Below are positions 49,172-64,000 of a DNA stretch of 64,000 nucleotides, piece by piece. The translations under genes and the position numbers were made by a program. This DNA is from Gemmatimonadaceae bacterium (GTDB lineage: Bacteria > Gemmatimonadota > Gemmatimonadetes > Gemmatimonadales > Gemmatimonadaceae): assembly GCA_040882285.1 (NCBI GenBank), contig JBBEBQ010000005.1, positions 365,681-429,680 of the forward strand, written 5' to 3'. The notes under the pieces are model-generated. The model saw only the letters and a program-made list of their open reading frames with translations, had not been told where the DNA came from and searched no databases. Each line of letters begins with the position of its first letter. The first letter of the stretch is position 1.

Positions 49172-49273
49172 GCTCCTGGGATATTCCAAGGGGAATCCAC
49201 CTCAACCGCTTGCCCACATGCGGCTACTGCCCTCGAGAAAGATGTTGGTCATCTACACGGGAACGGTTAGGTG
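49172..49273. repeat. Divergent palindromic element ending on an aminotransferase start codon
   Basis: It begins GCTCCTGGGATATTCCAAGGGGAATCC, the same left boundary motif as at 4994 and 50630. Short complementary ends CACCTCAACCG (49198-49208) and CGGTTAGGTG (49264-49273) follow; the right one contains the GTG start codon of the next gene. The centre is not clearly heptameric, so it looks like an eroded family member. Confidence 0.5.
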
Positions 49274-50596
49274 ACGGCTGTTGAGAGCGAAGTAACCACC
49301 GCCCCCGACTTCGGCGATCAGGACCGTCTCGCCGAATCGTTGTCCGAGCTTTCACGGGGAATGCACCTCTCGGGCATTCTCCGCACCGCCAACCAGGTGC
49401 GCGAGCTGCGGGCGGCCGGCGCCGAGATTCTGGACTTCAGCATCGGCGACTTCGGCCCGAAGTATTTCCGGATTCCGGAGAAGCTGCTGCGCGAAGTAGA
49501 GAAAGCACTCGAGTCCGGCGTGACCAACTACCCCCCGCCACCCGGTCTGGCCGCGCTCCGCAAGGCGGTGAGCGGCTACGTCGAGCGGTGCTCGGGCGTG
49601 CGCTACCCCTTGGAGTCGGTCCTCATTACGTGCGGCGGACGGCCGGTGCTGTATGCCGCGTACCGCACGGTTGTCGAGCCGGGCGACACCGTCGTGTACT
49701 CCGTGCCGTCGTGGAACAACGATTCGTACGCGTGGCTATCGGGCGCCAACGCCGTCGAGATCGAGGCGCTGAGCGAGAACGGATTCCAACCCACGCTCGC
49801 CGAGCTCGAGCCGCACATGCGGACCGCGCGGCTGATATGCCTCTGCTCGCCGGGAAATCCGACGGGCACGGCGATGGCGCCCGATACGTTCAAGTCGATC
49901 CTCGAGGCGATCGTGCGGGAGAATCGCCGGCGCGAGAGCGACGGCAACGAGCGGCCGCTGTTCCTGCTGTACGACCAGATCTACAGCTCGATCCGCGTCA
50001 AGGACAACAAGCATCGATATGCGCTCGCGCTCGTGCCCGAGTCAGCACCCTACGTGCTGACGGTGGACGGTGCGTCGAAGGCTTTCTCGGCGACCGGCCT
50101 CAGAATCGGCTGGCTGCTCGCGGCGCCGGCGATCGTGCGGAAGGCCGGTGAGCTCGTGTCGCACATGGGAGCCTGGGCACCGCACGCCGAGCAGGTGGGA
50201 CTCACGGAGCTGCTGAACGATCCGGACTCGATCGCCGAGTACCGGGAGACGATGGACGCGGCGGTGCACGAGCGCCTCGACGCGCTGCACCGCGGGTTCG
50301 CCGCGATGCGCGAGGAGGGCCTCCCCGTGGACGTGCTGTGCCCCGACGGAGCGATCTACGTGTCGCTGCGGCTCGAGCTCAAAGGGAAGCGGATCGGCGG
50401 GCGGGTGCTGGAGGACAACGAGATGATCCGCTCGCTCGTGCTCGAGCAGGCCGGTGTGGCGCTGGTGCCATTCCAGGCGTTCGGCCTGATGCGCGAGACG
50501 GGCTGGTTCCGGTTGAGCGTCGGCGCCGTCTCCATGGAAGAAATAGCGGAAGCGTTAGCCCGGATTCGGGCGCTGCTCTCCCGGGTTACGCGCTGA
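49271..50596 (+). CDS. PLP-dependent class I/II aminotransferase
   Basis: A 441-residue fold-type I enzyme. Motifs: ILDFSIGDFGPKYF, TNYPPPPGLAALRKAVSGY, the NPTG block SPGNPTGTAM, LLYDQIYSSI with the PLP-interacting Asp and Tyr, Schiff-base Lys in VDGASKAFSATGLRIGW and a C-terminal Arg in WFRLSVGAVS that binds the substrate carboxylate. These assign it to the aspartate-aminotransferase superfamily without fixing the amino acid. The GTG start is embedded in the repeat element. Confidence 0.9.
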   Translation: MTAVESEVTTAPDFGDQDRLAESLSELSRGMHLSGILRTANQVRELRAAGAEILDFSIGDFGPKYFRIPEKLLREVEKALESGVTNYPPPPGLAALRKAVSGYVERCSGVRYPLESVLITCGGRPVLYAAYRTVVEPGDTVVYSVPSWNNDSYAWLSGANAVEIEALSENGFQPTLAELEPHMRTARLICLCSPGNPTGTAMAPDTFKSILEAIVRENRRRESDGNERPLFLLYDQIYSSIRVKDNKHRYALALVPESAPYVLTVDGASKAFSATGLRIGWLLAAPAIVRKAGELVSHMGAWAPHAEQVGLTELLNDPDSIAEYRETMDAAVHERLDALHRGFAAMREEGLPVDVLCPDGAIYVSLRLELKGKRIGGRVLEDNEMIRSLVLEQAGVALVPFQAFGLMRETGWFRLSVGAVSMEEIAEALARIRALLSRVTR

Positions 50597-51688: not shown

Positions 51689-52267
51689 ATGGGAGAATCC
51701 GCGAGCGTCAGCGAGGAGCTGATGCAGGAGCACCGGCTCATCGAGCGGGTGCTGGACGCGCTCGAGACCGCCGCGGGACATCTCGAGGCCGGGCATTCCG
51801 TGCCGCCGGAGTTCTTTCTCGACGCCGCCGATTTCATCGCCGGCTTCGCCGACGGGTGCCATCACAAGAAGGAGGAAGGCGTGCTCTTCGGCGCTATGGT
51901 GGAGAGCGGTCTGCCGCGCCCCGAGGAGCCCCCGCTGGAGATCTTTCTCGACGAGCACGTGGAGGGGCGCGCGCTCACGCGCGCCATGCGCGACGCCGCG
52001 GGGCAGCTGCGCGGCGGCGAAGCCGGCGCGCGCGCCACGCTCATCTCGAGCGTGAATAGCTACGTCGCGCTGCTCCGCGATCACATCGTCAGGGAAGACG
52101 AGATGCTGTTCCCGATGGCGGAGGAGATGCTTTCAGCCGACCAGCGGCGGAGCGTGCTGCGCGACTTCGAGCGGGTCGAGCGGGAGGACGTCGGAGCGGG
52201 AGCCCACGAGCGGTTCCATGCGCTCGCCGAGAGACTGGAGCGCGAGGCCGCGGCGATGACCTCGTAG
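51689..52267 (+). CDS. Hemerythrin-like (HHE) domain protein
   Basis: A 192-residue four-helix protein with the iron-ligand pattern of hemerythrin domains: MQEHRLIERVLDALE (His), FADGCHHKKEEGVLFGAM (H-HxxxE), FLDEHVEGRALTRAMRDA (His) and LLRDHIVREDEMLFPMAEE (HxxxE). It may bind oxygen, NO or serve as an iron-based redox sensor. The ATG at 51689 has AGGGAG eight bases before it; a GTG at 51650, overlapping the previous stop, is the alternative. Adjacent to an oxygen-sensitive pathway, a protective role is possible, but this is inference. Confidence 0.88.
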   Translation: MGESASVSEELMQEHRLIERVLDALETAAGHLEAGHSVPPEFFLDAADFIAGFADGCHHKKEEGVLFGAMVESGLPRPEEPPLEIFLDEHVEGRALTRAMRDAAGQLRGGEAGARATLISSVNSYVALLRDHIVREDEMLFPMAEEMLSADQRRSVLRDFERVEREDVGAGAHERFHALAERLEREAAAMTS

Positions 52268-52273
52268 GCGATC

Positions 52274-53359
52274 CTAGGAGGGCACCAGCACGGCGCGCTT
52301 CATGAGCCCGCCGTGGTGGGCGCGGTCGAATACGTCGTTGATGTCCGCGAGCATGTGCCTTTCCACGAACGGCCGCACCGCAATCCGGCCGTCCGCGATC
52401 CACTCCAGCAGCTCGGGATACACCAGCGGGTCGGCGCCCCAATTGCCCTGCGCGATGGCGTCGAAGGCCATCAGGTTCGAGAGCGCGAGCTCGACCTTGC
52501 CCGTCGCGTAGCCGACCACCGACAGCGTCGCGCCGTAGCCGATGAGCCCGTACGCGAGCTCCTGCCCCGCGCGCGTTCCCGACGTCTCGAAGATCTTCCA
52601 CAGAAACGGCCTCGCGCCCAGCTCCTCCGCGAAGCGCTTGACCTGCTTGCGCACGTCCTGCACCGATGAGTCGCTGACGTTGAGCGTCACGTGCGCGCCG
52701 GCAGCGCGCGCCTGCTCGAGCTTGGCGTCGTCTATGTCGAGCGCGACGACTTTCGCGCCCGCCGCGGAGGCTATCTGCACGCCGTACACGCCGATGCCCC
52801 CGACTCCCACGCACACGGCCAGGTCGCCCGCCGCGAGACCCGAGCGCTTCACCGCCTGGAAGGGCGTGGCCACCGCATCGGCGACGACGCTCAGCTCCCA
52901 GAGATCGTGCCGGCGAAGAACCGCGTCGGGTACGGTGCAGATGTACCGCGCCGGCAGGACGACGTGCGACGCGAATCCGCCGTGGCGGTCGTTGCCGGGC
53001 ATCACCTGCTTGCGGCAGATGGAGCGGCGGCCGGCGCGGCACAGGTCGCACTCGCCACACGGCAGCACGGCCGGCACGACCACCGGCCGTCCGACAAGAG
53101 CCGGATCGACGCCGGGTCCAACGGCCCGCACGTATCCGCTTATCTCGTGGCCGAGCACGAGCGGCAACGCCGACCGCGTACGCACTCCGCCATGCAGGAA
53201 GGAGAGATCGGTATGGCACACGCCGCAGCCCGCCACTTCGATCGTCGCTTCGCCGGCGCCCGGCGTCTCCGCCGGCCGCGGTGCATGCTCGAGCACCGCG
53301 TCGGGCGCGGTCATCATCCACGCGTCCCACATTCCGCCGGCGGTCATCGCGGTCGTCAC
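52274..53359 (-). CDS. had: 6-hydroxycyclohex-1-ene-1-carbonyl-CoA dehydrogenase (Had-like)
   Basis: A 361-residue zinc alcohol dehydrogenase. The catalytic-zinc motif CGVCHTDLSFLHGG and GHEISG are at the front, and the structural-zinc cysteines in LPCGECDLCRAGRRSIC follow. The Rossmann motif is VGVGGIGVYGVQ. The C-terminal NWGADPLVYPELL, FVERHMLADINDVFDRAHH stretch is close to what I recall of Thauera Had and Geobacter BamQ. It oxidises the 6-hydroxy intermediate with NAD+ to 6-oxocyclohex-1-ene-1-carbonyl-CoA. The GTG at 53359 overlaps the ligase stop. It is the last gene of the run. Confidence 0.85.
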   Translation of the reverse strand: MTTAMTAGGMWDAWMMTAPDAVLEHAPRPAETPGAGEATIEVAGCGVCHTDLSFLHGGVRTRSALPLVLGHEISGYVRAVGPGVDPALVGRPVVVPAVLPCGECDLCRAGRRSICRKQVMPGNDRHGGFASHVVLPARYICTVPDAVLRRHDLWELSVVADAVATPFQAVKRSGLAAGDLAVCVGVGGIGVYGVQIASAAGAKVVALDIDDAKLEQARAAGAHVTLNVSDSSVQDVRKQVKRFAEELGARPFLWKIFETSGTRAGQELAYGLIGYGATLSVVGYATGKVELALSNLMAFDAIAQGNWGADPLVYPELLEWIADGRIAVRPFVERHMLADINDVFDRAHHGGLMKRAVLVPS

Positions 53360-55251
53360 CCGAACCACTCGCCCGGAGACGCGGCCGGGGACAGGTCACC
53401 GAACAGCACGCTGCCGCACTCGTGACAGCGGTCGAGCGTGCAGTCCTTCCCGGCAAAGCAGTGCCGGTCGTCCGGCATGAGCCGCATGATCTTCCGCAGG
53501 AACCGGCAGTCGCAATCGATGCTCGGCTCGTAAATGGCTTCGAGGTACCCTTCCGCGTTCTGCAGCACGTTCCGCACGCGCACCTTCATGGACGGCGTGA
53601 GCTCGCGCGCCTCGAGCGACAGCTCCTTGGCGACCACCGCGAACGCCTCGATGCGCTCGTACTTTGCCGGCCGCTCCTGGTTGAATCGCATGATGGTCTC
53701 CCGCAGCGAGTCCTTGACGACGCGGTCCGCGGTCGCCTGGTCGTCCCCGAACTGCTCGGCGATCCGGAAATAATCCGGGTAGATCAGCGCGGCAAGGAAG
53801 CGGCGTCCGTCGCCGGCGACGATCACATGCCGGATGAAGCTGTTCATTCCGGCCAGGCGATTCTCGATCTCAGTCGGGACGATCTTCTCCGCGTTGAGCA
53901 TCTTGAAGACGCGGTCCTTCCGGCTGATGAGCTTGAGCCCGGTGCCCACGAATTCCCCGAGATCCCCGGTGTGAAACCAGCCGTCCCCGGGGAGCGCGGC
54001 CTGCGTCGCGGCGGGGTCGTTGTCGTATCCCCGCATCACGTTGGAGCCCTTCACCAGGATCTCGCCGTCTGGGGCGATGCGCACGCTCACGCCCGGAATC
54101 GGATACCCCACCATCCCGGGCAACCCGCGAGCTTCGGTGAGATCCGTCATGGTGCAACATGGGGACGTCTCGGTCAGACCCCACCCCTCGAGCACGGGAA
54201 TCCCCTTCCCGGCGAAGTACGCCGAGATGTTCGCCGGCAATGGCGCGGCCGCGGTGAACACGAAGCGCAGTCCGGGGTGGAAAATTCGCGGCTCGTCTTC
54301 GGGGTGCGTTTGCGCGTGCGCGACCAGCTGCTGGTACACCTGCGGAACGCTGAAGTAGATCGTCGGCTGGACGTCCAGCCAGTTGGCCAGCAGACGGCTC
54401 GTGTCCTTGCCGAGCGAATCGTCGATGTAGATCGTAGCGCCGTTGTACAGCGCGGTGTACTTCTCGAAGATCCCGCCGAAGCTGTGATGCCACGGCAGGT
54501 ACGACAGGAGCCGGTCCTCGGACGTGACATTCCATACCGCGCCGAGCGCGCGCTGCTGGGAGAGAATGTTGTCGTGCGTGAGTACTACGCCCTTCATCCG
54601 GCCGCTCGTGCCCGACGTGTACATCATCAGGCAGGCCGTGGACGGGTCCACTTGCGCCGCGTAGGCGAGGAAAGCGTCCGCGGCCGCGGCGGTGGCGGCG
54701 CCGGCTCCGCGCTCCAGCGCGCCGGCGAACGGCAATATCCGCGTCAGCGGACCGGCCGAAACCGCGTCGCGCTCCGCCTCCGTCAGCGGGTCCAGCGTGA
54801 CCAGCGCGCGCACCGTCTGCGGCACGCACGCCCGCATGAGCTGCTGGCGTCCGGCCACGACGAGGATCGTGGGATCGGCGTACTCGATCAGGTCGCGCAG
54901 CTGCTCGGCGGAGTAGCCCGCGAAGATGGGGACGTACGTGGCGCCGAGGCACATCGTAGCTAGCTCGACGACCAGCAGCTCGCCGCGATTCGGCGAGACC
55001 GACACGACGCGCGTGTTCGGTCCCACTCCCGCGTCCGCCAGAAAGCGCCCGAACGTGACGACGTCTTCCAGGCATTCCCTCCAGCTGACCCTGTGGAACG
55101 CTCCGTCGCGCTTTACGCCGTACATGGCATGGCGCGGGAACCGGGCCGCGTTGCGCGCCAGCATCACGCCCACCGACTCGCGCTCGCCGACCGGCCGCAG
55201 CCGCGAGTAGATGGTGTTGCCGTCCCGGACGGCGGCGCTGCCGAGGCTCAT
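53356..55251 (-). CDS. AMP-forming acyl-CoA synthetase with cysteine-rich tail
   Basis: A 631-residue adenylate-forming ligase. Motifs: MMYTSGTSGRMKGVVLTHDN (A3), YLPWHHSFGGIFEKY, EGWGLTETSPCCTMTDL (A5), GDGWFHTGDLGEF (A7) and LISRKDRVFKMLNAEKIVPTEIE (A8). The arrangement is of the long-chain type. Beyond the normal end is a segment with six Cys (IDCDCRFLRK, HCFAGKDC, DRCHECGS), possibly a zinc or Fe-S site. In this operon it could activate benzoate, cyclohexanecarboxylate or a related acid; the specificity is not visible. It overlaps both neighbours by 4 nt. Confidence 0.8.
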   Translation of the reverse strand: MSLGSAAVRDGNTIYSRLRPVGERESVGVMLARNAARFPRHAMYGVKRDGAFHRVSWRECLEDVVTFGRFLADAGVGPNTRVVSVSPNRGELLVVELATMCLGATYVPIFAGYSAEQLRDLIEYADPTILVVAGRQQLMRACVPQTVRALVTLDPLTEAERDAVSAGPLTRILPFAGALERGAGAATAAAADAFLAYAAQVDPSTACLMMYTSGTSGRMKGVVLTHDNILSQQRALGAVWNVTSEDRLLSYLPWHHSFGGIFEKYTALYNGATIYIDDSLGKDTSRLLANWLDVQPTIYFSVPQVYQQLVAHAQTHPEDEPRIFHPGLRFVFTAAAPLPANISAYFAGKGIPVLEGWGLTETSPCCTMTDLTEARGLPGMVGYPIPGVSVRIAPDGEILVKGSNVMRGYDNDPAATQAALPGDGWFHTGDLGEFVGTGLKLISRKDRVFKMLNAEKIVPTEIENRLAGMNSFIRHVIVAGDGRRFLAALIYPDYFRIAEQFGDDQATADRVVKDSLRETIMRFNQERPAKYERIEAFAVVAKELSLEARELTPSMKVRVRNVLQNAEGYLEAIYEPSIDCDCRFLRKIMRLMPDDRHCFAGKDCTLDRCHECGSVLFGDLSPAASPGEWFG

Positions 55252-56069
55252 GGCTGACCCAGCTCCGCCATGTCGGGCGTGTCCACCGTGTCGTGCGTCT
55301 CACACGCGGCGAAGGCCGCGAGCGCGGCACCGAACGCGCCCATCTCCTGGGGGTGGGGCGGCACGACCACCTCGCCCCGGCATGCCTCAGCGATCAGCTC
55401 CACCATGATCGGGTGGTATGCGACCACTCCCCCCGTCGGCACGATTTTCCCTTCGAGCACGTCCATCGACACGATGCGCTTGAGGAGCGACCGGTACGCC
55501 GCCATGGCCAGATCCGCGGGCTGCTTCCCGCCGCGGATGAGAGTCAGCAGCTCGGTTCCGGCGAACACCGTGCAGAAGCTCGATAGCTCGAGGTTCTCGG
55601 TCGATCCGCGGCCGAGCGCGTTCAACTCGTCGACTCGGATCCCCAGCCGCAGCGCGATCTCGTCGAGGAAGCTCCCCGTGCCGGCCGCGCATTTCCGGTT
55701 CATGCGGTGCGACAGACGGCGGCCGGCGGCATCGAGCCGGATGACCTTCGCGTCCTGCCCGCCGATGTCGACGACGACGAGCGGCCCCGGTATGAAATGC
55801 GCCACGCCGCGCCCGTGACAATCGAGCTCCGTGCGCGATCCGTCCGCGAACGGAATCGTGTTTCTGCCGAAGCCGGTGGACCATACCGCCTTGACGTCGC
55901 CGCGCGCGCGGCCGCTGTTGGCCAGCGCCGTCTCGTAAGCGCGCTCGGCCGCCGCGGTCAAGTCCGCGCCGGACCGCGTGACCGCGGTGCCCAGCACCTC
56001 GCAATTCCCGTCGATGACGACCGCCTTCGTCGTCCAGGATCCGCTGTCGACGCCGGCGTAGTACGTCAT
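55248..56069 (-). CDS. bcrD: Benzoyl-CoA reductase-type ATPase subunit, canonical (BcrD/BadG-like)
   Basis: A 273-residue BadF/BadG/BcrA/BcrD family ATPase. AGVDSGSWTTKAVVID is the phosphate-1 loop and VVVDIGGQDAKVIRL the phosphate-2 loop, both intact. Iron-sulfur ligands are Cys127 in KCAAGTGSFLDEIA and Cys166 in SSFCTVFAGTELL, the same numbers as in the hydroxyglutaryl-CoA dehydratase activator. It would hydrolyse ATP to push low-potential electrons into the catalytic subunits. It is coupled by 4-nt overlaps on both sides. With a second ATPase gene at 57310, the set matches the BcrA/BcrD heterodimer. Confidence 0.88.
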   Translation of the reverse strand: MTYYAGVDSGSWTTKAVVIDGNCEVLGTAVTRSGADLTAAAERAYETALANSGRARGDVKAVWSTGFGRNTIPFADGSRTELDCHGRGVAHFIPGPLVVVDIGGQDAKVIRLDAAGRRLSHRMNRKCAAGTGSFLDEIALRLGIRVDELNALGRGSTENLELSSFCTVFAGTELLTLIRGGKQPADLAMAAYRSLLKRIVSMDVLEGKIVPTGGVVAYHPIMVELIAEACRGEVVVPPHPQEMGAFGAALAAFAACETHDTVDTPDMAELGQP

Positions 56070-57313
56070 CGCCGCGGACCTCTTCCCGCGGTCGCCGCGC
56101 GCGCGTCGGTCAGCTGCTCGACGAACCCCTCGATGTTCGTGCGCGCCTGCTCGTCGGAGAAGCACCGCAGGTCGTTCACGTCGCCGTCGAGCACGAGGGT
56201 CGGAATTCCCAGGCGCCCGGTGATGCGCCCCGGCATCCCGTAGCGCGTGTTCGAGTTGTTCGAGCAGGTCCGGCAGTCGTGGAAGATCACGCCGTCTACG
56301 TCGTAGAACTCCGCCATGCGGGCGATGTAGCGTTCCTTCGGTGCTTCGGAGCGCGCGATGAACAGCTCCAGCAGCGCGCGGGAGACGGACCGCCACGGGT
56401 CGGCGGGGTCGAGGCCCGCGAACGCCCAGCTGTTGCAGTACGTCGAGGCCACGACCGCCGTATCGAACTCGGCGAACATCGTGGACAGCGCGCGCAGCCG
56501 TCCCCAGACAGGCATGCCGTCCCAGTACAGGCGCAGCGTCTCTCCCGGCACGGCTCCCACGCGGCTCTCGACGCGCTGCCGCAGCTCGGCCAGCAACGTT
56601 CGGTAGTACGCGGGAGCGTCCTCGGTGCCGCGCAGCACCACGGCCGGTCCCATGTGGATGGTGCCGTCGAAGAACGTCAGCGGTGCCGGCCGCGCCGCGG
56701 CGGTCTCGAGACACGCGCCCCAGAGATCCGCTCCGTCCCTCGACGCGCGCGTAGCGCTCGCCAGTCGTGAGTCGTCGAGCCGCGTCCCGGCGATCTGCTC
56801 GAGCGGCGCCACCAGCGCTTCGAGCTGCCTCGTCACTGCGTCGATGTCACTTTCCATGACCTCGTCGATCGCGCGCGGCGAGTGCAGGCCGACGACGGGA
56901 ACTCCCAGCTCGCGCCCGTACCACTCGAACCAGTCGCGTACGTCCCGGCACTGGTTCGTATTGAACACGAGCACGTCCGGCGTCGGCGCGCGCTCCAGGC
57001 CGTAGGCCCTGAGCGGCGACTCGCCCGCGAGGTACGCGCCGATGTCGCTGGTGAGGTACGAGCAGATGTCCTGCGAGTACCCCTGCGCGTGCGCCAGCGG
57101 CAGGTACCGGTTGGCCGTGCGCGCGGCGCCCATGATCGCCGCGTGGTTCTCGGGAAAGTGCACCGCGAATCCGAGCGCGCGCAGCAATTCGGCCGGTCCG
57201 ACGCTCGTGCACCACGCCACCGGCGCGGTCCCGCGGAGGGCGGCATCCGCCAACGAGCGGTAATACGCGTCCATGGTGGCGCGCAGCGCGGTGGTGCTGG
57301 CGAGCTCGGTCAA
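56066..57313 (-). CDS. Benzoyl-CoA reductase/2-hydroxyacyl-CoA dehydratase catalytic subunit, canonical
   Basis: A 415-residue member of the HgdB/BcrB/BcrC (FldB/FldC) family. The three typical cluster ligands are Cys35 in VAWCTSVGPAELLRALGF, Cys84 in GYSQDICSYLTSDIG and Cys347 in FHDCRTCSNNSN; extra cysteines lie at 122 and 350. VHFPENHAAIMGA and YWDGMPVWGRLR are further family blocks. It should bind a [4Fe-4S] cluster next to the substrate CoA ester. Which of BcrB or BcrC it corresponds to cannot be decided by eye, so no symbol is given. 4-nt overlaps on both sides. Confidence 0.85.
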   Translation of the reverse strand: MTELASTTALRATMDAYYRSLADAALRGTAPVAWCTSVGPAELLRALGFAVHFPENHAAIMGAARTANRYLPLAHAQGYSQDICSYLTSDIGAYLAGESPLRAYGLERAPTPDVLVFNTNQCRDVRDWFEWYGRELGVPVVGLHSPRAIDEVMESDIDAVTRQLEALVAPLEQIAGTRLDDSRLASATRASRDGADLWGACLETAAARPAPLTFFDGTIHMGPAVVLRGTEDAPAYYRTLLAELRQRVESRVGAVPGETLRLYWDGMPVWGRLRALSTMFAEFDTAVVASTYCNSWAFAGLDPADPWRSVSRALLELFIARSEAPKERYIARMAEFYDVDGVIFHDCRTCSNNSNTRYGMPGRITGRLGIPTLVLDGDVNDLRCFSDEQARTNIEGFVEQLTDARAATAGRGPRR

Positions 57314-58149
57314 TGCAGCGCTCCTCCCGCGTGATCGACCACGCGGAGCGCGGGCTGTTCCCCCCGCTCACTGAAGGCTGCGAGCGCGGCTCCGAATGCG
57401 CCAGTGCAGATCGGCTCCGGCAGCGTGGTCACCCGCAACCCCGAGAGAGATTCCAGCGCGCGGAGCACGCCGGGGAAATACTCCACGACCCCTCCGGACA
57501 CCACGACAGGGTCCGCGAATGAGCCCAGCTCCAGTACGCGCTGCGCGACGGACCGCACGCAGCCCAAAGCCACCTGCTCGCGGCTGGCGCCCTCCCGCAG
57601 GCGCTCGAGCACTTCGGACGCGGAAAACACCGAGCAATAGCTGGTCACGACCGCCGCGTCTCCGGCGGCCGCGTCGGCAAGCTCGTCGAGCTGCGCGGCG
57701 CCGACGTCGAGTTGACGCGCAGCGAGCGTGAGAAAGCTCCCGACTCCCACGGCGCAGCGACGCATCCCGCGGGATCCGGTCTGGCCTCCCGTGGCGTCCA
57801 CGACGATCACGTGCGGATCGCCGCCTCCGATGTTCACCAGCGTCATGGCGTGTGGCAGGTGCTGGAACGCGCCTCGCGCATGCGCCGCGGATTCCATGAG
57901 GGTCAGCGTCGCGCCGGGAACGCATGCCATGCCGAACCCCGTCGCGCCGACGCCTGCCAGGTCCTCGAGCCGGCTCCCCGAGTCGTGCAGAGCGGCGGTC
58001 AGCGCCTCGTATGCGCAGACCTGGAAGTAGCCGCGCGTGGGGAGCACCGAGCGGCCGAGCGTGCGCCCGGCATCCGTTATCACCACGGCCTTCACGCACT
58101 CGGTTCCGACGTCCACACCCGCCGCGATTCCGCTCGAATTCCGGGACAC
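57310..58149 (-). CDS. bcrA: Benzoyl-CoA reductase-type ATPase subunit, divergent (BcrA-like)
   Basis: A 279-residue paralogue of the BcrD-type gene. GVDVGTECVKAVVITD is the phosphate-1 loop. Cluster ligands are kept at Cys132 (RRCAVGVGSFL) and Cys172 (SYCSVFSASEVL). The phosphate-2 loop reads VNIGGGDPHVI where the partner has VDIGGQDAKVI, so the conserved Asp is Asn106 and the Gln is Gly. Nucleotide hydrolysis may be weakened. The adenosine motif VVVSGGVVEYFPG remains. It sits between the two catalytic-subunit genes with a 2-nt gap from the fused one and a 4-nt overlap with the other. Confidence 0.82.
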   Translation of the reverse strand: MSRNSSGIAAGVDVGTECVKAVVITDAGRTLGRSVLPTRGYFQVCAYEALTAALHDSGSRLEDLAGVGATGFGMACVPGATLTLMESAAHARGAFQHLPHAMTLVNIGGGDPHVIVVDATGGQTGSRGMRRCAVGVGSFLTLAARQLDVGAAQLDELADAAAGDAAVVTSYCSVFSASEVLERLREGASREQVALGCVRSVAQRVLELGSFADPVVVSGGVVEYFPGVLRALESLSGLRVTTLPEPICTGAFGAALAAFSERGEQPALRVVDHAGGALH

Positions 58150-58151
58150 GG

Positions 58152-60467
58152 CTAACTCCCCCTCGCAAGTATCGGCTCGCGACCGGCGTGGTGCGCAGCC
58201 CGCAGCTCGTGCCGCTCCAGGAACTCCGCGAGCTGCTGCTCCATCCGATCGGCCGAAAAGAGCCGCTCGTCATGCGAGTCGGACTCGATCACCAGCGCGG
58301 GCACGCCCGTCTGTCGCTCGGTCCGGACCGCGAGGCCGTAGCGCACGGGGCTCCCTTCCGGTGTCGTGCGCGAATCGTGGAACACGGCGGCGTCGACGCG
58401 AAACCGCTCGAACCTGGAGGCGAGATAATCACGCTGGTATCGCTGCGACCGGTTGCCGAACACGCCGGCGTAGGTCCGCGCGACGCTCTCGATCGGGTCG
58501 AGCGCGTCGAGCCCCGGGAGCGTGAACGTCTCGCACGGTGTAGCCGCGACGATCGAGACGCCGTGATCGGCGAACATCCGCGTGACGGGTCGCAACGCGC
58601 TCCAGACCGGCGGGCCGTCCCAGTAGAAGCGGTGTCGCTCGCCCGGTACCGCCGCGATGCCGCTCGCTACGCGGTCCTCGACTTCGCTCTTGAGGAGCCG
58701 GTAGTAGGCGGCCGCCTCCGGCGTCCCGCGCAGGACGACCATCGGCGTCAGGTGCGTCAGCATGTCGCCGAACGTCAGCGGAGCGGGCACGGTGGACGCC
58801 AGCTCCAGAACATCGGTCCAGAGCTGCGCCGCCTCCACCGTGTGCGCCACGGTCTCGCTGAGGCGATCCATGAAGAGCGTGAGACCGGTGGCGTGCTCGA
58901 CCTGCTCGACGAGGCGGAGGACCTGCTCGGTCGCCCCGTACGCCTCGGAGCTGCCCATCCTGTCCATCGCCGGCAACGGGCACAGTCCCGCGACCGGCAC
59001 GCCGAAGTGCGCGCCATAAAACTCGAACCAGCGCGGCAGCTCCTGACCGGTGCTGGTCGAGTACACGGCGATATCGCAACGCGGCGTGCCCGTGATTCCA
59101 TCGGTCATGACGAGCGGACCGCTCTCGGACAGCAGCGCTCCGATGTCCGTGCGCATCGCCGAGCTGGAGAACGGGGAGAAGCCTTCGGCGGACGCCCGCG
59201 CCATGTAGCGGGCGGCCTCGTGCCGGGCACTGATGCGCGCGGCGCGGTTCTCCGGAAACCAGGGAACGATGCCGAGCGCGCGAACGATCTCGACCGGAGC
59301 CAGACACGACGTCGCGGCTACGAAGCGGTCGGGGTCCTCGGATGCGGCGGCGAGGTCGCGGTGGTATTCCCGGATGATCTCCCGCAGGCGCCGCGTGCTC
59401 TCGAGAGCCGGCAGCTCCTGCCGGTTCCATGGCTCGGAACCGGCAGCGGACGGCACGGTGCGACCGCTACCGGCGGTCGCCCGCTTGGATCCGGATCCGG
59501 CGTCGAGCCCCAGCGCGCGCGAGACGCTCTGCCGGTTGAGAAACTTCTGCCGCTCGCGCGAATGCACGAACCGCACGAGCGCCGCGTTGTGCGGCGCGTG
59601 GAGCCCGAGTCGCCCCGCCTCCGCGACCACCGCGCCGTTGAGCGAGTCAATCTCAGTTCGCACTCCGCGCGCGAGGTCCTGCCACATCGTCGGGCGGTTG
59701 TTCCCGAGCGCGGCGAGCGATCCGAGCAGCGGACGGAACGGATCCTCCTCATCGACGATCGGAACGCCGCGCGCGCGCATGACAGCGACGATTTCCGCGC
59801 ACAGGTCGCGGATGAACGCCAGTAGGTCCTCGTCTCCGAGGATCTCGCGGCAGGTGAGTCCGGTAATGGCCGATACCGGATTGATCGACGCGTTGTGCAG
59901 CAGCTTCTGCCACACCGCATGATCGATGTTCGCGACCACGGCGGTATCGAGCCCGGCCGCCCGGAACATCTCTCCGATCGCATCGATCGCCGGAGTCACG
60001 ACGCCGTCGAAGGGAGCGATCTGGATCGGCTTGATTCCGGCGCGGAACTGCAGGCGCCCCGGCCCGACGTGCTGCACGCTGTGATAGGTGATGCCGCACA
60101 GCACCCGATCCGGACCGACGAGACCGGCCACCAGCTCCGCGTTGCCGACGCCGTTCTGCATGGACAGGAAGCGCGTATCCGCGCGCGCGGCCGGTAGCGC
60201 GGCCCGCACCGCGTCCTCGGTCTGATACGTCTTCACCGCGATGAAGACCAGGTCGAACGGATCGAGCCCTTCCAGCGAGGTAACGACGCGCAGCGGAACC
60301 GTGATGGACTCGCCGCCTCCGGACCGCGCGATCTGCAACCCGTCCGTGTTGAGCTGATGCGCGCGCGCGGCATTCACCTCGAGGAGTGTCACGTCCTCTC
60401 CGGCGCGCGTGAGCATTGCTCCCACGAGCCCGCCCAGCGCGCCCGCGCCGACGACGAGGACTCTCAT
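58152..60467 (-). CDS. Fusion: ketopantoate-reductase-like domain plus Bcr/2-hydroxyacyl-CoA dehydratase-like domain
   Basis: A 771-residue two-domain protein. Residues 1-315 form a full KPR (ApbA/PanE) domain: VVGAGALGGLVGAMLTRAG for NAD(P), Lys188 in VWQKLLHN and TEIDSLNGAVV with Glu272, so catalysis looks possible. A Gly/Ser linker (about 320-350) leads to a BcrB/C-family domain (355-771) that aligns along its length with the separate 415-residue subunit. Only one cluster ligand is kept (Cys388); the equivalents of Cys84, Cys347 and Cys350 are Ser435, Ser699 and Thr702. The domain may therefore lack its own [4Fe-4S]. It is in one continuous frame with no sign of a sequencing join. Confidence 0.88.
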   Translation of the reverse strand: MRVLVVGAGALGGLVGAMLTRAGEDVTLLEVNAARAHQLNTDGLQIARSGGGESITVPLRVVTSLEGLDPFDLVFIAVKTYQTEDAVRAALPAARADTRFLSMQNGVGNAELVAGLVGPDRVLCGITYHSVQHVGPGRLQFRAGIKPIQIAPFDGVVTPAIDAIGEMFRAAGLDTAVVANIDHAVWQKLLHNASINPVSAITGLTCREILGDEDLLAFIRDLCAEIVAVMRARGVPIVDEEDPFRPLLGSLAALGNNRPTMWQDLARGVRTEIDSLNGAVVAEAGRLGLHAPHNAALVRFVHSRERQKFLNRQSVSRALGLDAGSGSKRATAGSGRTVPSAAGSEPWNRQELPALESTRRLREIIREYHRDLAAASEDPDRFVAATSCLAPVEIVRALGIVPWFPENRAARISARHEAARYMARASAEGFSPFSSSAMRTDIGALLSESGPLVMTDGITGTPRCDIAVYSTSTGQELPRWFEFYGAHFGVPVAGLCPLPAMDRMGSSEAYGATEQVLRLVEQVEHATGLTLFMDRLSETVAHTVEAAQLWTDVLELASTVPAPLTFGDMLTHLTPMVVLRGTPEAAAYYRLLKSEVEDRVASGIAAVPGERHRFYWDGPPVWSALRPVTRMFADHGVSIVAATPCETFTLPGLDALDPIESVARTYAGVFGNRSQRYQRDYLASRFERFRVDAAVFHDSRTTPEGSPVRYGLAVRTERQTGVPALVIESDSHDERLFSADRMEQQLAEFLERHELRAAHHAGREPILARGS

Positions 60468-60498: not shown

Positions 60499-61308
60499 TC
60501 ATCGGTTCTTCCACACGGGTCGCCGCTTCTCGAAGAACGACGCGAGCCCTTCGCGCACGTCCTCCGTGGCCATCAGCTCTCCGAGGAAGGCATCCTCGGC
60601 CGCGCGGCGCGCCCCCTCGAATGGCTGACCGAGCAGCGCGCGCGTCAGCCGCACGTTCATCCGCAGCACGAGCGGGCTCGCGCGCCGCAGGTCCGCGAGC
60701 ACGCCTTCCACGGCCGCCGGCAGCTCCGCCGCCGCGACCACGCGCGACACGAGTCCCAGCGCGAGCATCTCGGCCGCCGTATACGTGCGTCCCGTGCACG
60801 TGATCTCGAGCGCGCGGCCCAGCCCGACGCGCGCCGGCAATGCCGTCACTCCGACCGGCGCGAAGAAGCCGAGCCTGATCTCCGGCTGCCCGAACGTGGC
60901 GCGCTCGCTCGCGAGGAGGACGTCGGCCATCATCGCCAGCTCGAACCCGGCCCCCAGCGCGGCTCCGTCGACCGCCATCACCAGCGGCAGCTCGCTCGCG
61001 CCCAGTACCTGGAACAGCCGGCTGAAGGCGGCGATCATCCCGGGCGCCTGTTCCGGCCGGTGCTCGCCGATGTCCGCGCCCGCCGAGAAGGCCTTGCCTT
61101 TCGCCGACAGCGCGATCCCGCAGAGCGACCGGTCCGCCTGTGCGCGCTCGAGGGCTTCGGCGAGCTGCAGCATCGCCGCCGCGGTCAATATGTTGAGCGG
61201 CGGCGCGTCCAGCGTCACGAACGCGATGCCCTCGCGCGCCTCGTAGCCGATGAAGCGCGCGGCGGTCGCCGCCTTCACGACAGGCTCGTGCGTGGGCGGT
61301 GCGCTCAT
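60499..61308 (-). CDS. dch: Cyclohexa-1,5-diene-1-carbonyl-CoA hydratase (Dch-like)
   Basis: A 269-residue crotonase-fold enzyme. LDAPPLNILTAAAMLQLA, KGKAFSAGADIGEHRPEQAPGMIAAF (oxyanion hole) and VDGAALGAGFELAMMADVLLASERATFGQPEIRLGFFAP are the key regions; PPLN and SAGxDxxEH with an FGQPEIxxGxFxP block are the Dch-type wording I know from Thauera and Syntrophus proteins. It adds water to the dienoyl-CoA made by benzoyl-CoA reductase. Coupled to the SDR gene upstream by 4 nt; 31 nt separate it from the fusion gene. Confidence 0.8.
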   Translation of the reverse strand: MSAPPTHEPVVKAATAARFIGYEAREGIAFVTLDAPPLNILTAAAMLQLAEALERAQADRSLCGIALSAKGKAFSAGADIGEHRPEQAPGMIAAFSRLFQVLGASELPLVMAVDGAALGAGFELAMMADVLLASERATFGQPEIRLGFFAPVGVTALPARVGLGRALEITCTGRTYTAAEMLALGLVSRVVAAAELPAAVEGVLADLRRASPLVLRMNVRLTRALLGQPFEGARRAAEDAFLGELMATEDVREGLASFFEKRRPVWKNR

Positions 61309-62054
61309 GCCAGTTGTCCTCCATCCACCCTGATCACCTCACCGGTAATGTGGCGGGAGGCTTCGCCGCACAGGAAGACCACCACACGGGCGATGTCCTC
61401 GGGCTCGGCCATCCGCCCGAGCGGCGTGTCGGCGAGCGCGCTCTCGAGCACGGCGGGCGGAAGCTTCGCGGTCATCTCCGTTCGCACCATCCCCGGAGCG
61501 ATGCAGTTCACGTTCACTCCTTTCGGGCCGAGCTCGCGCGCGAAAGTGCGCGTGAGCGCTATGACTCCGGCCTTCGACGCCGCGTAATTCGACTGCCCCG
61601 CCTTGCCACGCAGGCCGTTGACGGACGCGATGTTCACGATCCGCCCGTGCAGCTGCTTCCGGAACGGGCCGGCGACCGCGCGACAGTACGCGAAGCAGCC
61701 CTTGAGATTGACGTCGATCACCTGATCCCACTGCTCTTCCGTCATCTTCCAGCTCATCGCGTCGCGCGTGATGCCGGCATTGCACACCAGATGATCGAGC
61801 CGCCCGAGCGCATCCACCGCGGCCGCGACCGTCCGCTCCGCGCCGGCGAAATCGGACACGTCGGCGCGAATCGCGATGGACCGCCTCCCCTCGTCACGCA
61901 GCTCCGCGGCCAGGCTCTCCGCTCCGGCGAACGCGCCGAATTCGACGAGCGCCACGTCGCAGCCGGCGCGCGCGAGCTCGCGCACGATCGCCGCGCCGAT
62001 GCCCCGTCCAGCGCCCGTCACCAGCGCGGCCTGTCCCGAGAGCGCGAGATTCAT
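61305..62054 (-). CDS. Short-chain dehydrogenase/reductase (FabG-like)
   Basis: A 249-residue SDR. TGAGRGIGAAIVRELA (cofactor), LVCNAGITRDAMSWKM, catalytic Ser in NIASVNG, Tyr-x-x-x-Lys in SNYAASKAG, and NCIAPGMVRTEMTAKLP. It resembles 3-oxoacyl-ACP or acetoacetyl-CoA reductases. In this operon it is the best candidate for oxidising 3-hydroxypimeloyl-CoA to 3-oxopimeloyl-CoA after ring opening. ATG 62054 is used; upstream in-frame codons overlap the oah end region and look non-coding. Confidence 0.85.
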   Translation of the reverse strand: MNLALSGQAALVTGAGRGIGAAIVRELARAGCDVALVEFGAFAGAESLAAELRDEGRRSIAIRADVSDFAGAERTVAAAVDALGRLDHLVCNAGITRDAMSWKMTEEQWDQVIDVNLKGCFAYCRAVAGPFRKQLHGRIVNIASVNGLRGKAGQSNYAASKAGVIALTRTFARELGPKGVNVNCIAPGMVRTEMTAKLPPAVLESALADTPLGRMAEPEDIARVVVFLCGEASRHITGEVIRVDGGQLA

Positions 62055-62068
62055 CGTGGTCCGTGGTC

Positions 62069-63031
62069 CTAGGCGAGCCCGGCCCCGCAGCTGCCGCAGA
62101 AGCTGAACTGCTCCGGCATTCCCTTCGCCCCGCACTTGCCGCACGCCTTGTCGTACGGGCCCCAGAGGAACTCGCTGCTACCTTCGCCGGCGGCTTTGCG
62201 CCGCAGCCCCATGAAGTCCACCTTCCGCTTCTCGACGAACGCCTGCATTCCCTCGTACGGCTCGAGCGTCGTGAAGTGCGTCGACAGCCAGTCGCGCGCG
62301 TGGCCGACCGTCGCGTGCCACGACACCTCCTTCCAGTAGTTCACCTGCTGCTTGGTGTACCGGGTGCACTCGGGGAACTTCTCGAGCAGCTGGCCGACGA
62401 GCGTGGCGACTTCCTCGTCGAGCTTCGCGCGGGGGACTACGCGATTCACCAGCCCCCATTCCAGCGCTTTCACCGCTGGAATCCGCGGATTGAGAAACAG
62501 CATCTCGCGCGCGCGACGATCGCCTACGTGGATCGACAGCCATTGGGTCGCGCCGCCGCATGCTACGCTGCCGACGCTCGTTCCCACCTGGGCCAGGTAC
62601 GTGTCGTCGGCCATGACCGCGAGATCGCACGCCAGCTGGGTCTCGTTTCCGCCGCCGACCGCGATCCCGTTGATGCGCGCGATCGTCACCTTGCCGCTCC
62701 GGAGGATGCTCTCGATGTACTTGGCGAACAGCCCCATGTACTTGAAGTAGTCGTGCGGACTCCTGGTGTAGACGTTCGCGTACTCTTTTACGTCGCCGCC
62801 GGTGCAGAACGCCTTGTCGCCGGCGCCGGTAAGCACGATCACCCCGACGTTGTCGTCGTTCGAGGCGTCGTCGACGGCGGTGATCAGCTCCTGCAGCGTG
62901 GACGTCGTGTAACAATTGAACGACTCGGGGCGGTTGATCGTGATGCGGCCGACCCAGTCCTTCTTCTCGTACAGGATGTCCTTGAAGCCGAATCCGGCGG
63001 CGTCTTTCGGAGCGAAGTAGTTCATCACCAA
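62069..63031 (-). CDS. oah: 6-oxocyclohex-1-ene-1-carbonyl-CoA hydrolase (Oah/BamA-like)
   Basis: A 320-residue crotonase-superfamily enzyme. TGAGDKAFCTGGDVKEYANVYTRSPHDYFKYMGLF, INGIAVGGGNETQLACDLAVM, VGSVACGGATQWLSIHVGDRRAREMLFLN and ALEWGLVNRVVP are close to the Oah sequences I recall, which are used as marker genes for anaerobic aromatic degradation. It hydrates and opens the ring to give 3-hydroxypimeloyl-CoA. A C-terminal four-Cys zinc ribbon (CGKCGAKG, FCGSCGAG) is appended. It is somewhat shorter than the usual roughly 370 residues, mainly at the N-terminus. Confidence 0.87.
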   Translation of the reverse strand: MVMNYFAPKDAAGFGFKDILYEKKDWVGRITINRPESFNCYTTSTLQELITAVDDASNDDNVGVIVLTGAGDKAFCTGGDVKEYANVYTRSPHDYFKYMGLFAKYIESILRSGKVTIARINGIAVGGGNETQLACDLAVMADDTYLAQVGTSVGSVACGGATQWLSIHVGDRRAREMLFLNPRIPAVKALEWGLVNRVVPRAKLDEEVATLVGQLLEKFPECTRYTKQQVNYWKEVSWHATVGHARDWLSTHFTTLEPYEGMQAFVEKRKVDFMGLRRKAAGEGSSEFLWGPYDKACGKCGAKGMPEQFSFCGSCGAGLA

Positions 63032-63055: not shown

Positions 63056-64000
63056 TCAGCGCGTGTCGACCCTTAGCACGATCGCGGCGGCGCTGTCGCC
63101 TGCGGCACAGCCGGTGAATAGCCCATAACCTCCGCCGAGGGTCACCAGGTCCTCGATCAGCTCCATTATCGAGCGAAGCCCGGTCGGCCCCTGGGGGTGT
63201 CCCCACACGAGCGAGCACCCGTGCCGGTTCATCCGCTCGGCGTCGAACTTCAGCTCGCGGACGAAGTACACGTCGTTCACGGCGAACGCGGTGTGGGTCG
63301 TGACGCTCGCGAGATCGCTCGCCCGGATCCCCGCGCGCTCGAGCGCGAGCTGCGCGGCGGGGACGACCGCCATCGGCATGAAGCCCTTCCGTGCGCGCGC
63401 CTGCCCGTAGGAGAGGAGCTGTACGTCCACGTTGCCGTCGGGCGCCAACGAGCGGGCGCGCGCGCGGCCCGCCGTGAGCAGCATGGCGGCGTTCCCGTCG
63501 GCGGGGCGCGTCTGTGTGCCATACGTGACCGTACCGCCTTCGAGAACCGGCCGGAGTCCGGCAAGTCCCGCGGCCGTCGTAGGGAAAACCCCCTCGTCTC
63601 CGGTTACCGTCGCGAGGACCTTCTTCCCACGCGCGTCCCTGACCTCCACCGGATTCAACATGTAGCGGCCGAAAAACGCGCCACCGTCTACACGAGCGGA
63701 CTCGTACTGCCCGTACCTGAGCAGCGCGATCTCGTCCTGCGCCTCGCGCGTGATCCCGGCCTCGCGCGCCACGTTCTCCGCCGTCTGGAGCATGGATCCC
63801 TTGGCGTAGGGATCGTGGCCGAAGCTGTCGAGCACGATGTTCTCCGATTCGCCGGTACCGCCCGGAGCCGCCGGGTTCGGATAGAACACGTGCGGCCCGT
63901 TGCTCGTGCGGTCCGCGGTTGCGGCGAGATAGGTGCGCGCGCCGTTCGACTCGAGCTCCTGCGCGCCCTGCACGACGCAGCGCACCGAGGTCGCGCACGC
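63056..64000 (-). CDS. Thiolase (acetyl-CoA acyltransferase), C-terminal part
   Basis: 315 codons of a gene that begins beyond the right edge. The fragment starts just at the nucleophile region (ACATSVRCVVQGAQ), then has the loop domain and the C-terminal domain with RHGCSLVWGHPQGPTG (catalytic His) and FTGCAAGDSAAAIVL (second Cys). It would split 3-oxopimeloyl-CoA into glutaryl-CoA and acetyl-CoA, which is consistent with the rest of the operon. The Cys in FTGCAAGD replaces the usual CGGG context, as in some lipid-transfer-type thiolases. 24 nt separate it from oah. Confidence 0.87.
   Translation of the reverse strand, partial: ACATSVRCVVQGAQELESNGARTYLAATADRTSNGPHVFYPNPAAPGGTGESENIVLDSFGHDPYAKGSMLQTAENVAREAGITREAQDEIALLRYGQYESARVDGGAFFGRYMLNPVEVRDARGKKVLATVTGDEGVFPTTAAGLAGLRPVLEGGTVTYGTQTRPADGNAAMLLTAGRARARSLAPDGNVDVQLLSYGQARARKGFMPMAVVPAAQLALERAGIRASDLASVTTHTAFAVNDVYFVRELKFDAERMNRHGCSLVWGHPQGPTGLRSIMELIEDLVTLGGGYGLFTGCAAGDSAAAIVLRVDTR

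What the first reader, a model, noticed from the sequence alone, without database searches (positions are those of the whole stretch)
58152..60467. Ketopantoate-reductase domain fused to a benzoyl-CoA-reductase-type subunit that has lost cluster ligands
A single reading frame joins a KPR-like domain with its key residues present (GxGxxG, Lys188, Glu272) to a BcrB/C-like domain. Aligned by eye with the separate 415-aa subunit at 56066-57313, the cluster cysteines at 84, 347 and 350 are Ser435, Ser699 and Thr702; only the Cys35 equivalent (Cys388) remains. I know of no such fusion. KPR-family enzymes reduce 2-oxoacids to 2-hydroxyacids, and the dehydratase superfamily acts on 2-hydroxyacyl-CoA, so the fusion could also mark a new reaction or a redox-sensing module in the reductase.
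Basis: partly seen in the sequence, partly recalled or inferred. Interest (0 to 1): 0.88.

Follow-up and report, generated by a model that had tools for sequence, protein, structure and literature searches.

The report
Reductase fused to cluster-less dehydratase subunit
In two groups of bacteria with genes for breaking down aromatic compounds without oxygen, a keto-acid-reducing enzyme has been fused to a spare copy of a radical-enzyme subunit that has lost its iron-sulfur cluster; the fusion is real and ancient, has not been described as far as I could find, and probably tethers two steps that feed the benzoyl-CoA pathway.

Summary
The 771-aa ORF (58152-60467, minus) is a genuine fusion: KPR/ApbA domain (1-308), non-conserved linker, HGD-D domain (about 353-771). 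It occurs in 16 of 395 Gemmatimonadota and 7 of 195 Myxococcota genomes, always as FUS-ATPaseA-HGD-ATPaseD beside benzoyl-CoA-pathway genes. The fused HGD-D domain has lost all three superfamily cluster cysteines (positions 84, 122 and 350 of its neighbour, not 84/347/350), while the neighbour keeps them in every sequence. It is not part of the benzoyl-CoA reductase: a complete canonical BcrCBAD lies about 11 kb upstream, outside the window. Both HGD-D proteins are on the active-site-subunit side of the family, and the neighbour carries the signature of 2-hydroxyacyl-CoA dehydratase (HadB), not of BcrB. Some Myxococcota show the unfused parts: a separate KPR gene between an enoyl-CoA hydratase and had, and a two-gene HGD+ATPase unit. 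The fusion therefore arose by duplication of that unit, decay of one copy's cluster site, and joining to KPR. KPR catalytic residues are invariant. Best reading: a one-cluster, 2-hydroxyacyl-CoA-dehydratase-type complex with a tethered 2-oxoacid reductase, plausibly arylpyruvate to cinnamoyl-CoA. Anatomy and evolution are well supported; reaction and substrate are inferred.

The parts
58152..60467 (-). Fused KPR (ApbA/PanE-type) + HGD-D protein, 771 aa (FUS)
   Evidence: conserved as one ORF in Gemmatimonadota and Myxococcota
59544..60467 (-). KPR domain (residues 1-308), catalytic Lys188/Glu272 and Asn105, Asn192, Asn196, Asn257 intact
   Evidence: Pfam ApbA/ApbA_C; residue columns against E. 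coli PanE, whose letters were checked identical to PDB 1yjq; dN/dS about 0.11
59412..59543 (-). Linker (residues 309-352), non-conserved, low confidence in the AlphaFold model
58155..59411 (-). HGD-D domain (residues 353-771) without any of the three cluster cysteines (Ser435, Gly474, Thr702)
   Evidence: model matches HadB best among HGD-D structures
57310..58149 (-). ATPa: acyl-CoA dehydratase activase/BcrA-D-family ATPase; bridging-cluster Cys kept, DIGGQD motif altered
56066..57313 (-). HGDb: 415-aa HGD-D catalytic subunit with cluster Cys84, Cys122, Cys350 and HadB-type W34/S37/E55
55248..56102 (-). ATPd: second activase-family ATPase, all motifs and both cluster Cys intact
53356..55251 (-). 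AMP-forming acyl-CoA ligase directly downstream; a CoA ligase is found beside the module in the loci examined that reach far enough
52274..53368 (-). [quoted passage not shown]
   Evidence: 437 bits, cut-off 338.65
60499..61308 (-). Enoyl-CoA hydratase (Dch-like, below the Dch cut-off)
61305..62054 (-). SDR dehydrogenase
62069..63031 (-). BadI/MenB/Oah-like ring hydrolase (below all curated cut-offs)
63056..64000 (-). Thiolase (405 aa; its start lies beyond the end of the window)

Best explanation
The four genes FUS-ATPa-HGDb-ATPd encode one complex related to 2-hydroxyacyl-CoA dehydratases and class I benzoyl-CoA reductases. HGDb is the only HGD-D subunit that can hold the active-site [4Fe-4S] cluster. 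It is energised by the ATPd/ATPa pair through their bridging cluster, and probably removes a hydroxyl group from the alpha carbon of a 2-hydroxyacyl-CoA (HadB-type radical chemistry). The HGD-D half of FUS is a cluster-less paralogue of HGDb that fills the partner position; it replaces the double-cubane (BcrC/BzdN/HadC-type) subunit that these modules lack, and it carries a KPR domain. The KPR domain is probably an active NAD(P)H-dependent 2-oxoacid reductase that makes the (R)-2-hydroxyacid. The adjacent CoA ligase would activate this acid, HGDb would dehydrate it, and hydratase/SDR/thiolase would shorten it to an aroyl-CoA that enters the benzoyl-CoA pathway (for example arylpyruvate -> aryllactyl-CoA -> cinnamoyl-CoA -> benzoyl-CoA). 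Shown: anatomy, ligand loss, co-conservation, evolutionary order. Inferred: complex formation, reaction, substrate.
For: Module conserved in order in two phyla. All three cluster Cys lost in every fused sequence and kept in every HGDb. FUS monophyletic (100/100) and grouped with HGDb and unfused HGDb relatives (98/97), next to HadB-type alpha subunits; both on the active-site side, not the BcrC/BzdN/HadC side. HGDb has the HadB signature W34-x-(T/S)36-S37...P54-E55-N56, BcrB does not; NCBIfam HadB 180 bits against BcrB 131; the fused domain's model matches HadB better than BzdO or MbdO. KPR ketopantoate-site residues invariant in 24 fused and 3 solo sequences (only the Ser244 position varies, Ser/Thr). 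Solo KPR (55-61% id) sits between an enoyl-CoA hydratase and had in three Myxococcota genomes that also carry the unfused HGDb+ATPd unit. CoA ligases flank HGDb units. Purifying selection on both domains. An unassigned phenyllactyl-CoA dehydratase step of exactly this kind is discussed for an anaerobic benzene degrader (PMC13416013).
Against: No substrate evidence. Had, and in Gemmatimonadota the ring hydrolase, tie the operon to ring cleavage rather than side-chain degradation. Two distinct ATPases are more like BCR than the single activase of dehydratases. In G195 the SDR and thiolase are missing from the cluster. The W/S/E signature is a similarity, not an assay. Whether FUS and HGDb form a heterodimer was not tested. 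The AlphaFold models are only moderate (mean pLDDT 66 and 60).
Confidence: 0.4

Rival explanations
1. A second ATP-dependent aroyl-CoA (benzoyl-CoA-type) reductase for substituted or further-reduced ring substrates, with one catalytic and one cluster-less HGD-D subunit; KPR handles a neighbouring ring ketone or alcohol and is tethered for channelling.
For: Always in benzoyl-CoA gene clusters with had and usually hcr; a pair of ATPases, one with an altered ATP motif as in BcrD; near perfect co-occurrence with class I BCR.
Against: Active-site signature is HadB-type, not BcrB/MbdO-type; no double-cubane subunit in the module; unfused HGDb units also occur in genomes with AFOR-family (class II BCR-type) enzymes and no BcrBC, so HGDb is not simply the dearomatising enzyme.
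Confidence: 0.25
2. The KPR domain is a nucleotide- or CoA-responsive regulatory module that gates the HGDb/ATPase complex (redox sensing), with catalysis vestigial.
For: Fusion to a subunit that has lost its own catalytic site; the top-scoring KPR structures include an archaeal enzyme solved with bound CoA (5ayv).
Against: Catalytic Lys/Glu and the carboxylate-binding Asn residues are invariant, unusual for a pure sensor; the same KPR exists as a free enzyme gene in related operons.
Confidence: 0.12
3. The KPR domain is the cell's housekeeping pantoate-forming enzyme and is fused only because it lies next to the HGD gene, raising CoA supply for a CoA-hungry pathway.
For: It is the only ApbA_C protein in this genome, and panB is present.
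Against: Congeners G002 and G003 have panB but no KPR at all, while G013 has the fusion and a second KPR but no panB; KPR follows the aromatic operon, not panB.
Confidence: 0.08
4. Assembly or frame-shift artefact joining two genes.
For: None found; all records here are draft assemblies.
Against: Single open frame in more than 20 genomes from two phyla; linker length kept although its sequence is free.
Confidence: 0.01

Closest known systems
(R)-2-hydroxyisocaproyl-CoA dehydratase HadBC + activator HadI (PDB 3o3m, 4eht)
   Same: HGDb is closest to HadB in sequence and active-site signature; the cluster cysteines match; the activases are of the same family
   Different: No HadC-type second subunit; the partner is a cluster-less HadB-type paralogue; two different ATPases; KPR domain fused; lies in a benzoyl-CoA operon
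Class I benzoyl-CoA reductase BcrCBAD / BzdNOPQ / MbdONPQ (PDB 8s02, 9g87, 9gai)
   Same: Two HGD-D plus two ATPase subunits, benzoyl-CoA gene cluster, one ATPase diverged
   Different: No BcrC/BzdN-type double-cubane subunit, active site not BcrB-like; a true BcrCBAD is encoded separately nearby
Double-cubane cluster protein DCCP and its reductase (PDB 6eno, 7yyl)
   Same: The unfused relatives are a two-gene unit of one HGD-D and one activase
   Different: Sequence closer to HadB; not all six double-cubane cysteines are present
Ketopantoate reductase / D-mandelate dehydrogenase family (PDB 5ayv, 5hws, 1yjq, 3wfi)
   Same: Fold, GxGxxG, catalytic Lys/Glu and substrate-binding Asn residues
   Different: Fused to HGD-D; has its own conserved segment (RAGIKPIQ); pathway-linked rather than pantothenate-linked

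Membership tests
ApbA/PanE (KPR) family | Rossmann GxGxxG and ApbA + ApbA_C domains | tested here: met
   (TIGR00745 247 bits, cut-off 141)
ApbA/PanE (KPR) family | Catalytic Lys176/Glu256 and Asn98, Asn180, Asn184, Asn241, Ser244 (E. coli numbering; roles from general knowledge) | tested here: met
   all kept in 24/24 fused sequences, with Ser/Thr at 244; E. coli letters verified
ApbA/PanE (KPR) family | Reduces 2-oxopantoate or another 2-oxoacid | not testable with these tools
   needs an assay
2-hydroxyacyl-CoA dehydratase (HadBC type) | Alpha subunit with three cluster Cys and HadB-type active-site residues | tested here: met
   HGDb; equivalog cut-off not reached (180 of 750 bits)
2-hydroxyacyl-CoA dehydratase (HadBC type) | Second subunit (HadC type) with its own Fe-S cluster | tested here: not met
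   the partner FUS is an alpha-type paralogue without cluster Cys
2-hydroxyacyl-CoA dehydratase (HadBC type) | Single homodimeric activator | tested here: not met
   two different activases in fused modules; one only in the unfused HGDb units
Class I benzoyl-CoA reductase | BcrC/BzdN-type double-cubane subunit | tested here: not met
   the canonical one is encoded elsewhere
Class I benzoyl-CoA reductase | BcrB/BzdO equivalog score for the active-site subunit | tested here: not met
   HGDb 131 bits (cut-off 486.55), FUS 88.7 bits
Class I benzoyl-CoA reductase | ATP-dependent dearomatisation | not testable with these tools
   needs an assay

The most novel reading that the evidence does not exclude
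A new class of 2-hydroxyacyl-CoA dehydratase-type enzyme that works with a single catalytic [4Fe-4S] subunit (ancestrally an HGDb+ATPase two-gene enzyme). In two phyla it has turned its duplicated, cluster-less subunit into a docking platform for a 2-oxoacid reductase, coupling 2-oxoacid reduction to radical dehydration and opening a route from arylpyruvates into the benzoyl-CoA pathway.
Probability: 0.3. Interest if true: 0.8.

Novelty: new variant of a known kind. Interest (0 to 1): 0.62.

Why it matters
Structurally known class I BCRs and 2-hydroxyacyl-CoA dehydratases have a cluster in both HGD-D subunits, and how electrons are stored between the ATPase and the active site is an open question. 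A conserved natural system in which one subunit has lost its cluster tests whether the second cluster is needed at all. The fusion also points to an undescribed entry or side branch of anaerobic aromatic degradation in Gemmatimonadota and Myxococcota, and it sets an unfused ancestor beside the fused form.

Tried and rejected
Frame error or chance: rejected by comparative data. Fusion as part of the benzoyl-CoA reductase: rejected as a family assignment, because a complete BcrCBAD is separate. HGDb as a double-cubane subunit: HGDb-clade Cys35 and Cys293 are clade-specific and lie at or near BzdN/DCCP ligand columns, but the full set of six is absent and most fused copies also keep these two, so I do not claim it. 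HGDb+ATPd as a minimal benzoyl-CoA reductase in genomes without BcrBC: weakened, because those genomes have several AFOR-family proteins, whereas the three genomes with BcrBC have none. Pantothenate role: distribution does not follow panB. The aminotransferase at 49271-50596 as supplier of arylpyruvate: no match to it in the related loci searched. AlphaFold models were too weak for residue geometry. Literature searches for KPR with benzoyl-CoA or with such a fusion returned nothing. In the tree a few HadB-labelled outgroup rows (L182, L191, L192, L193, L196) are probably mis-extracted or very divergent and were not used for conclusions.

Full report
OBSERVATION. The minus-strand ORF 58152-60467 encodes 771 aa without interruption. 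Pfam finds ApbA (3-154), ApbA_C (180-304) and HGD-D (390-751), all far above cut-off. The neighbours on the same strand are, in transcription order: thiolase, a BadI/MenB/Oah-like hydrolase, SDR, enoyl-CoA hydratase, the fusion (FUS), an activase-type ATPase (ATPa), a 415-aa HGD-D protein (HGDb), a second ATPase (ATPd), an AMP-forming CoA ligase, and Had, the only one over its curated cut-off as a benzoyl-CoA-pathway enzyme.

CORRECTION OF THE LIGANDS. PMC11971306 gives the BzdO active-site cluster ligands as Cys95, Cys128 and Cys380. By alignment these are Cys84, Cys122 and Cys350 of HGDb. They are present in all HGDb, BcrB-like, HadB-type and reference sequences. In the fusions position 84 is Ser (rarely Asn, Pro or Gln), 122 is Gly or Ser, and 350 is Thr, Ala, Ser or Asn: none of the 25 fused rows keeps any of the three (some rows are near-identical). 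The fused domain also lost Tyr86 (Ala, Glu or Gly) and mostly Trp34, equivalents of BzdO Tyr97 and Trp46, which line the substrate. So it cannot be a catalytic HGD-D subunit of the known kind.

NOT AN ARTEFACT. The fusion is a single frame in 16 of 395 Gemmatimonadota genomes and 7 of 195 Myxococcota genomes (in G450 it lies across two contig ends), at identities down to 49%. Nei-Gojobori dN/dS against three relatives is 0.11-0.14 for the KPR domain, 0.35-0.83 for the linker, 0.20-0.25 for the fused HGD-D domain and 0.10-0.17 for HGDb. Both domains are selected; the HGD-D part is somewhat relaxed compared with HGDb.

THE REAL BENZOYL-COA REDUCTASE IS ELSEWHERE. About 11 kb upstream, beyond the window, lie BcrC, BcrB, BcrA and BcrD, each over its NCBIfam equivalog cut-off, with a 4-hydroxybenzoyl-CoA reductase-like protein between them and this operon. 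In Gemmatimonadota canonical BcrB is over cut-off in 17 of 395 genomes; 15 of the 16 fusion genomes are among these 17. The sixteenth, G195, has an Mbd-type class I reductase directly beside the module. All seven Myxococcota fusion genomes also encode BcrBC. The module is thus an addition to, not a variant of, the dearomatising enzyme.

ANATOMY AND ORIGIN. The order FUS-ATPa-HGDb-ATPd is invariant where the contig allows it to be read. Trees place FUS as one clade (100/100) grouped with HGDb and its unfused relatives (98/97), next to HadB-type alpha subunits. An independent tree puts both on the HadB/BzdO/BcrB side and not on the BcrC/BzdN/HadC side. ATPa and ATPd also group together (97, with long branches). 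Ten Myxococcota genomes carry only HGDb+ATPd (about 50-57% identical), next to CoA ligases and often had, dch or oah genes. Three of them have a separate KPR gene, 55-61% identical to the fused domain, in an operon thiolase-SDR-thiolase2-ChsH2-like-hydratase-KPR-had as far as the contigs show it. The simplest history: an HGD+ATPase unit duplicated in tandem, one copy lost its cluster site, and the block came to lie between kpr and had, where kpr fused with the first HGD gene.

PREDICTED CHEMISTRY. All KPR active-site positions tested (E. coli K176, E256, N98, N180, N184, N241, S244) are conserved in 24 fused and 3 solo sequences, apart from Ser/Thr exchange at 244 (E. coli sequence verified). 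An invariant Glu at the end of beta-2 hints at NADH preference (inference). HGDb carries W34, T/S36, S37, E55, N56 like HadB; BcrB has T/V, V, P/M, E and I there. Foldseek of the model of the fused protein places HadB (3o3m) above BzdO and MbdO for the HGD-D half and KPRs and D-mandelate dehydrogenases for the first half (model confidence only moderate). Together with the adjacent CoA ligase, hydratase, SDR and thiolase this suggests 2-oxoacid -> 2-hydroxyacid -> CoA ester -> enoyl-CoA -> shortened aroyl-CoA. The same sequence with a still unassigned dehydratase has been considered for anaerobic benzene degradation (PMC13416013). The substrate is a guess; the dehydratase-type reaction is an inference from signatures and context.

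ALTERNATIVES. A second aroyl-CoA reductase is the main rival: the ATPase pair, one of them diverged in the DIGGQD motif as BcrD is, resembles BCR. Against it are the HadB-type site, the missing double-cubane subunit, and HGDb units in genomes without BcrBC but with AFOR-family proteins. The pantothenate role is unlikely: two congeners have panB and no KPR, while G013 has the fusion and no panB. A sensor role is possible but unsupported.

VERDICT. Observation confirmed with corrections; interpretation partly supported. The architecture was not found in the papers searched. It fails the defining features of both HadBC and class I BCR on the partner subunit, so it is filed as a new variant of the HGD-D/activase kind.

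Noticed in passing
L042 (G000:C5 430001-450000), just outside the window: Complete canonical bcrCBAD and a fused HcrC-HcrA-like 4-hydroxybenzoyl-CoA reductase protein, in the same orientation as the window's operon.
   Followed up: yes
window 62069-63031: All 16 Gemmatimonadota fusion genomes lack a canonical Oah (TIGR03200) and have only this BadI/MenB-like hydrolase, with a C-terminal CxxC..CxxC tail; G060 (Bcr, no fusion) has a true Oah. Ring cleavage may differ in these bacteria.
   Followed up: partly
L154 3169-7225, L157 1036-3491, L158 1-8028: More distant KPR-family genes (26-29% identical) lie beside had/oah/dch or other aromatic-pathway genes in other Myxococcota; KPR-type dehydrogenases may have an undescribed general role in the benzoyl-CoA pathway.
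   Followed up: partly
HGDb Cys35 and Cys293 (window 56066-57313): Two extra cysteines invariant in HGDb and its unfused relatives, at or near double-cubane ligand columns of BzdN/DCCP, and kept in most cluster-less fused copies; reason unknown.
   Followed up: partly
window about 51690-52267 (+), L045 8309-8872, L116 4111-4671: A hemerythrin-like small protein next to had in several genomes, possibly oxygen protection for the oxygen-sensitive enzymes (recognised by eye, not by a profile search).
   Followed up: no
L042 11562-18402: hypC, hypD, a [NiFe]-hydrogenase large subunit, cytochrome b and a maturation protease beside the benzoyl-CoA cluster, a possible electron source or sink (named by eye).
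   Followed up: no
G402, G405, G408, G409, G410, G413, G566: Myxococcota with unfused HGDb+ATPd but no BcrBC carry 3-7 AFOR-family proteins each, while three with BcrBC have none, suggesting a class I/class II benzoyl-CoA reductase split within the phylum.
   Followed up: partly
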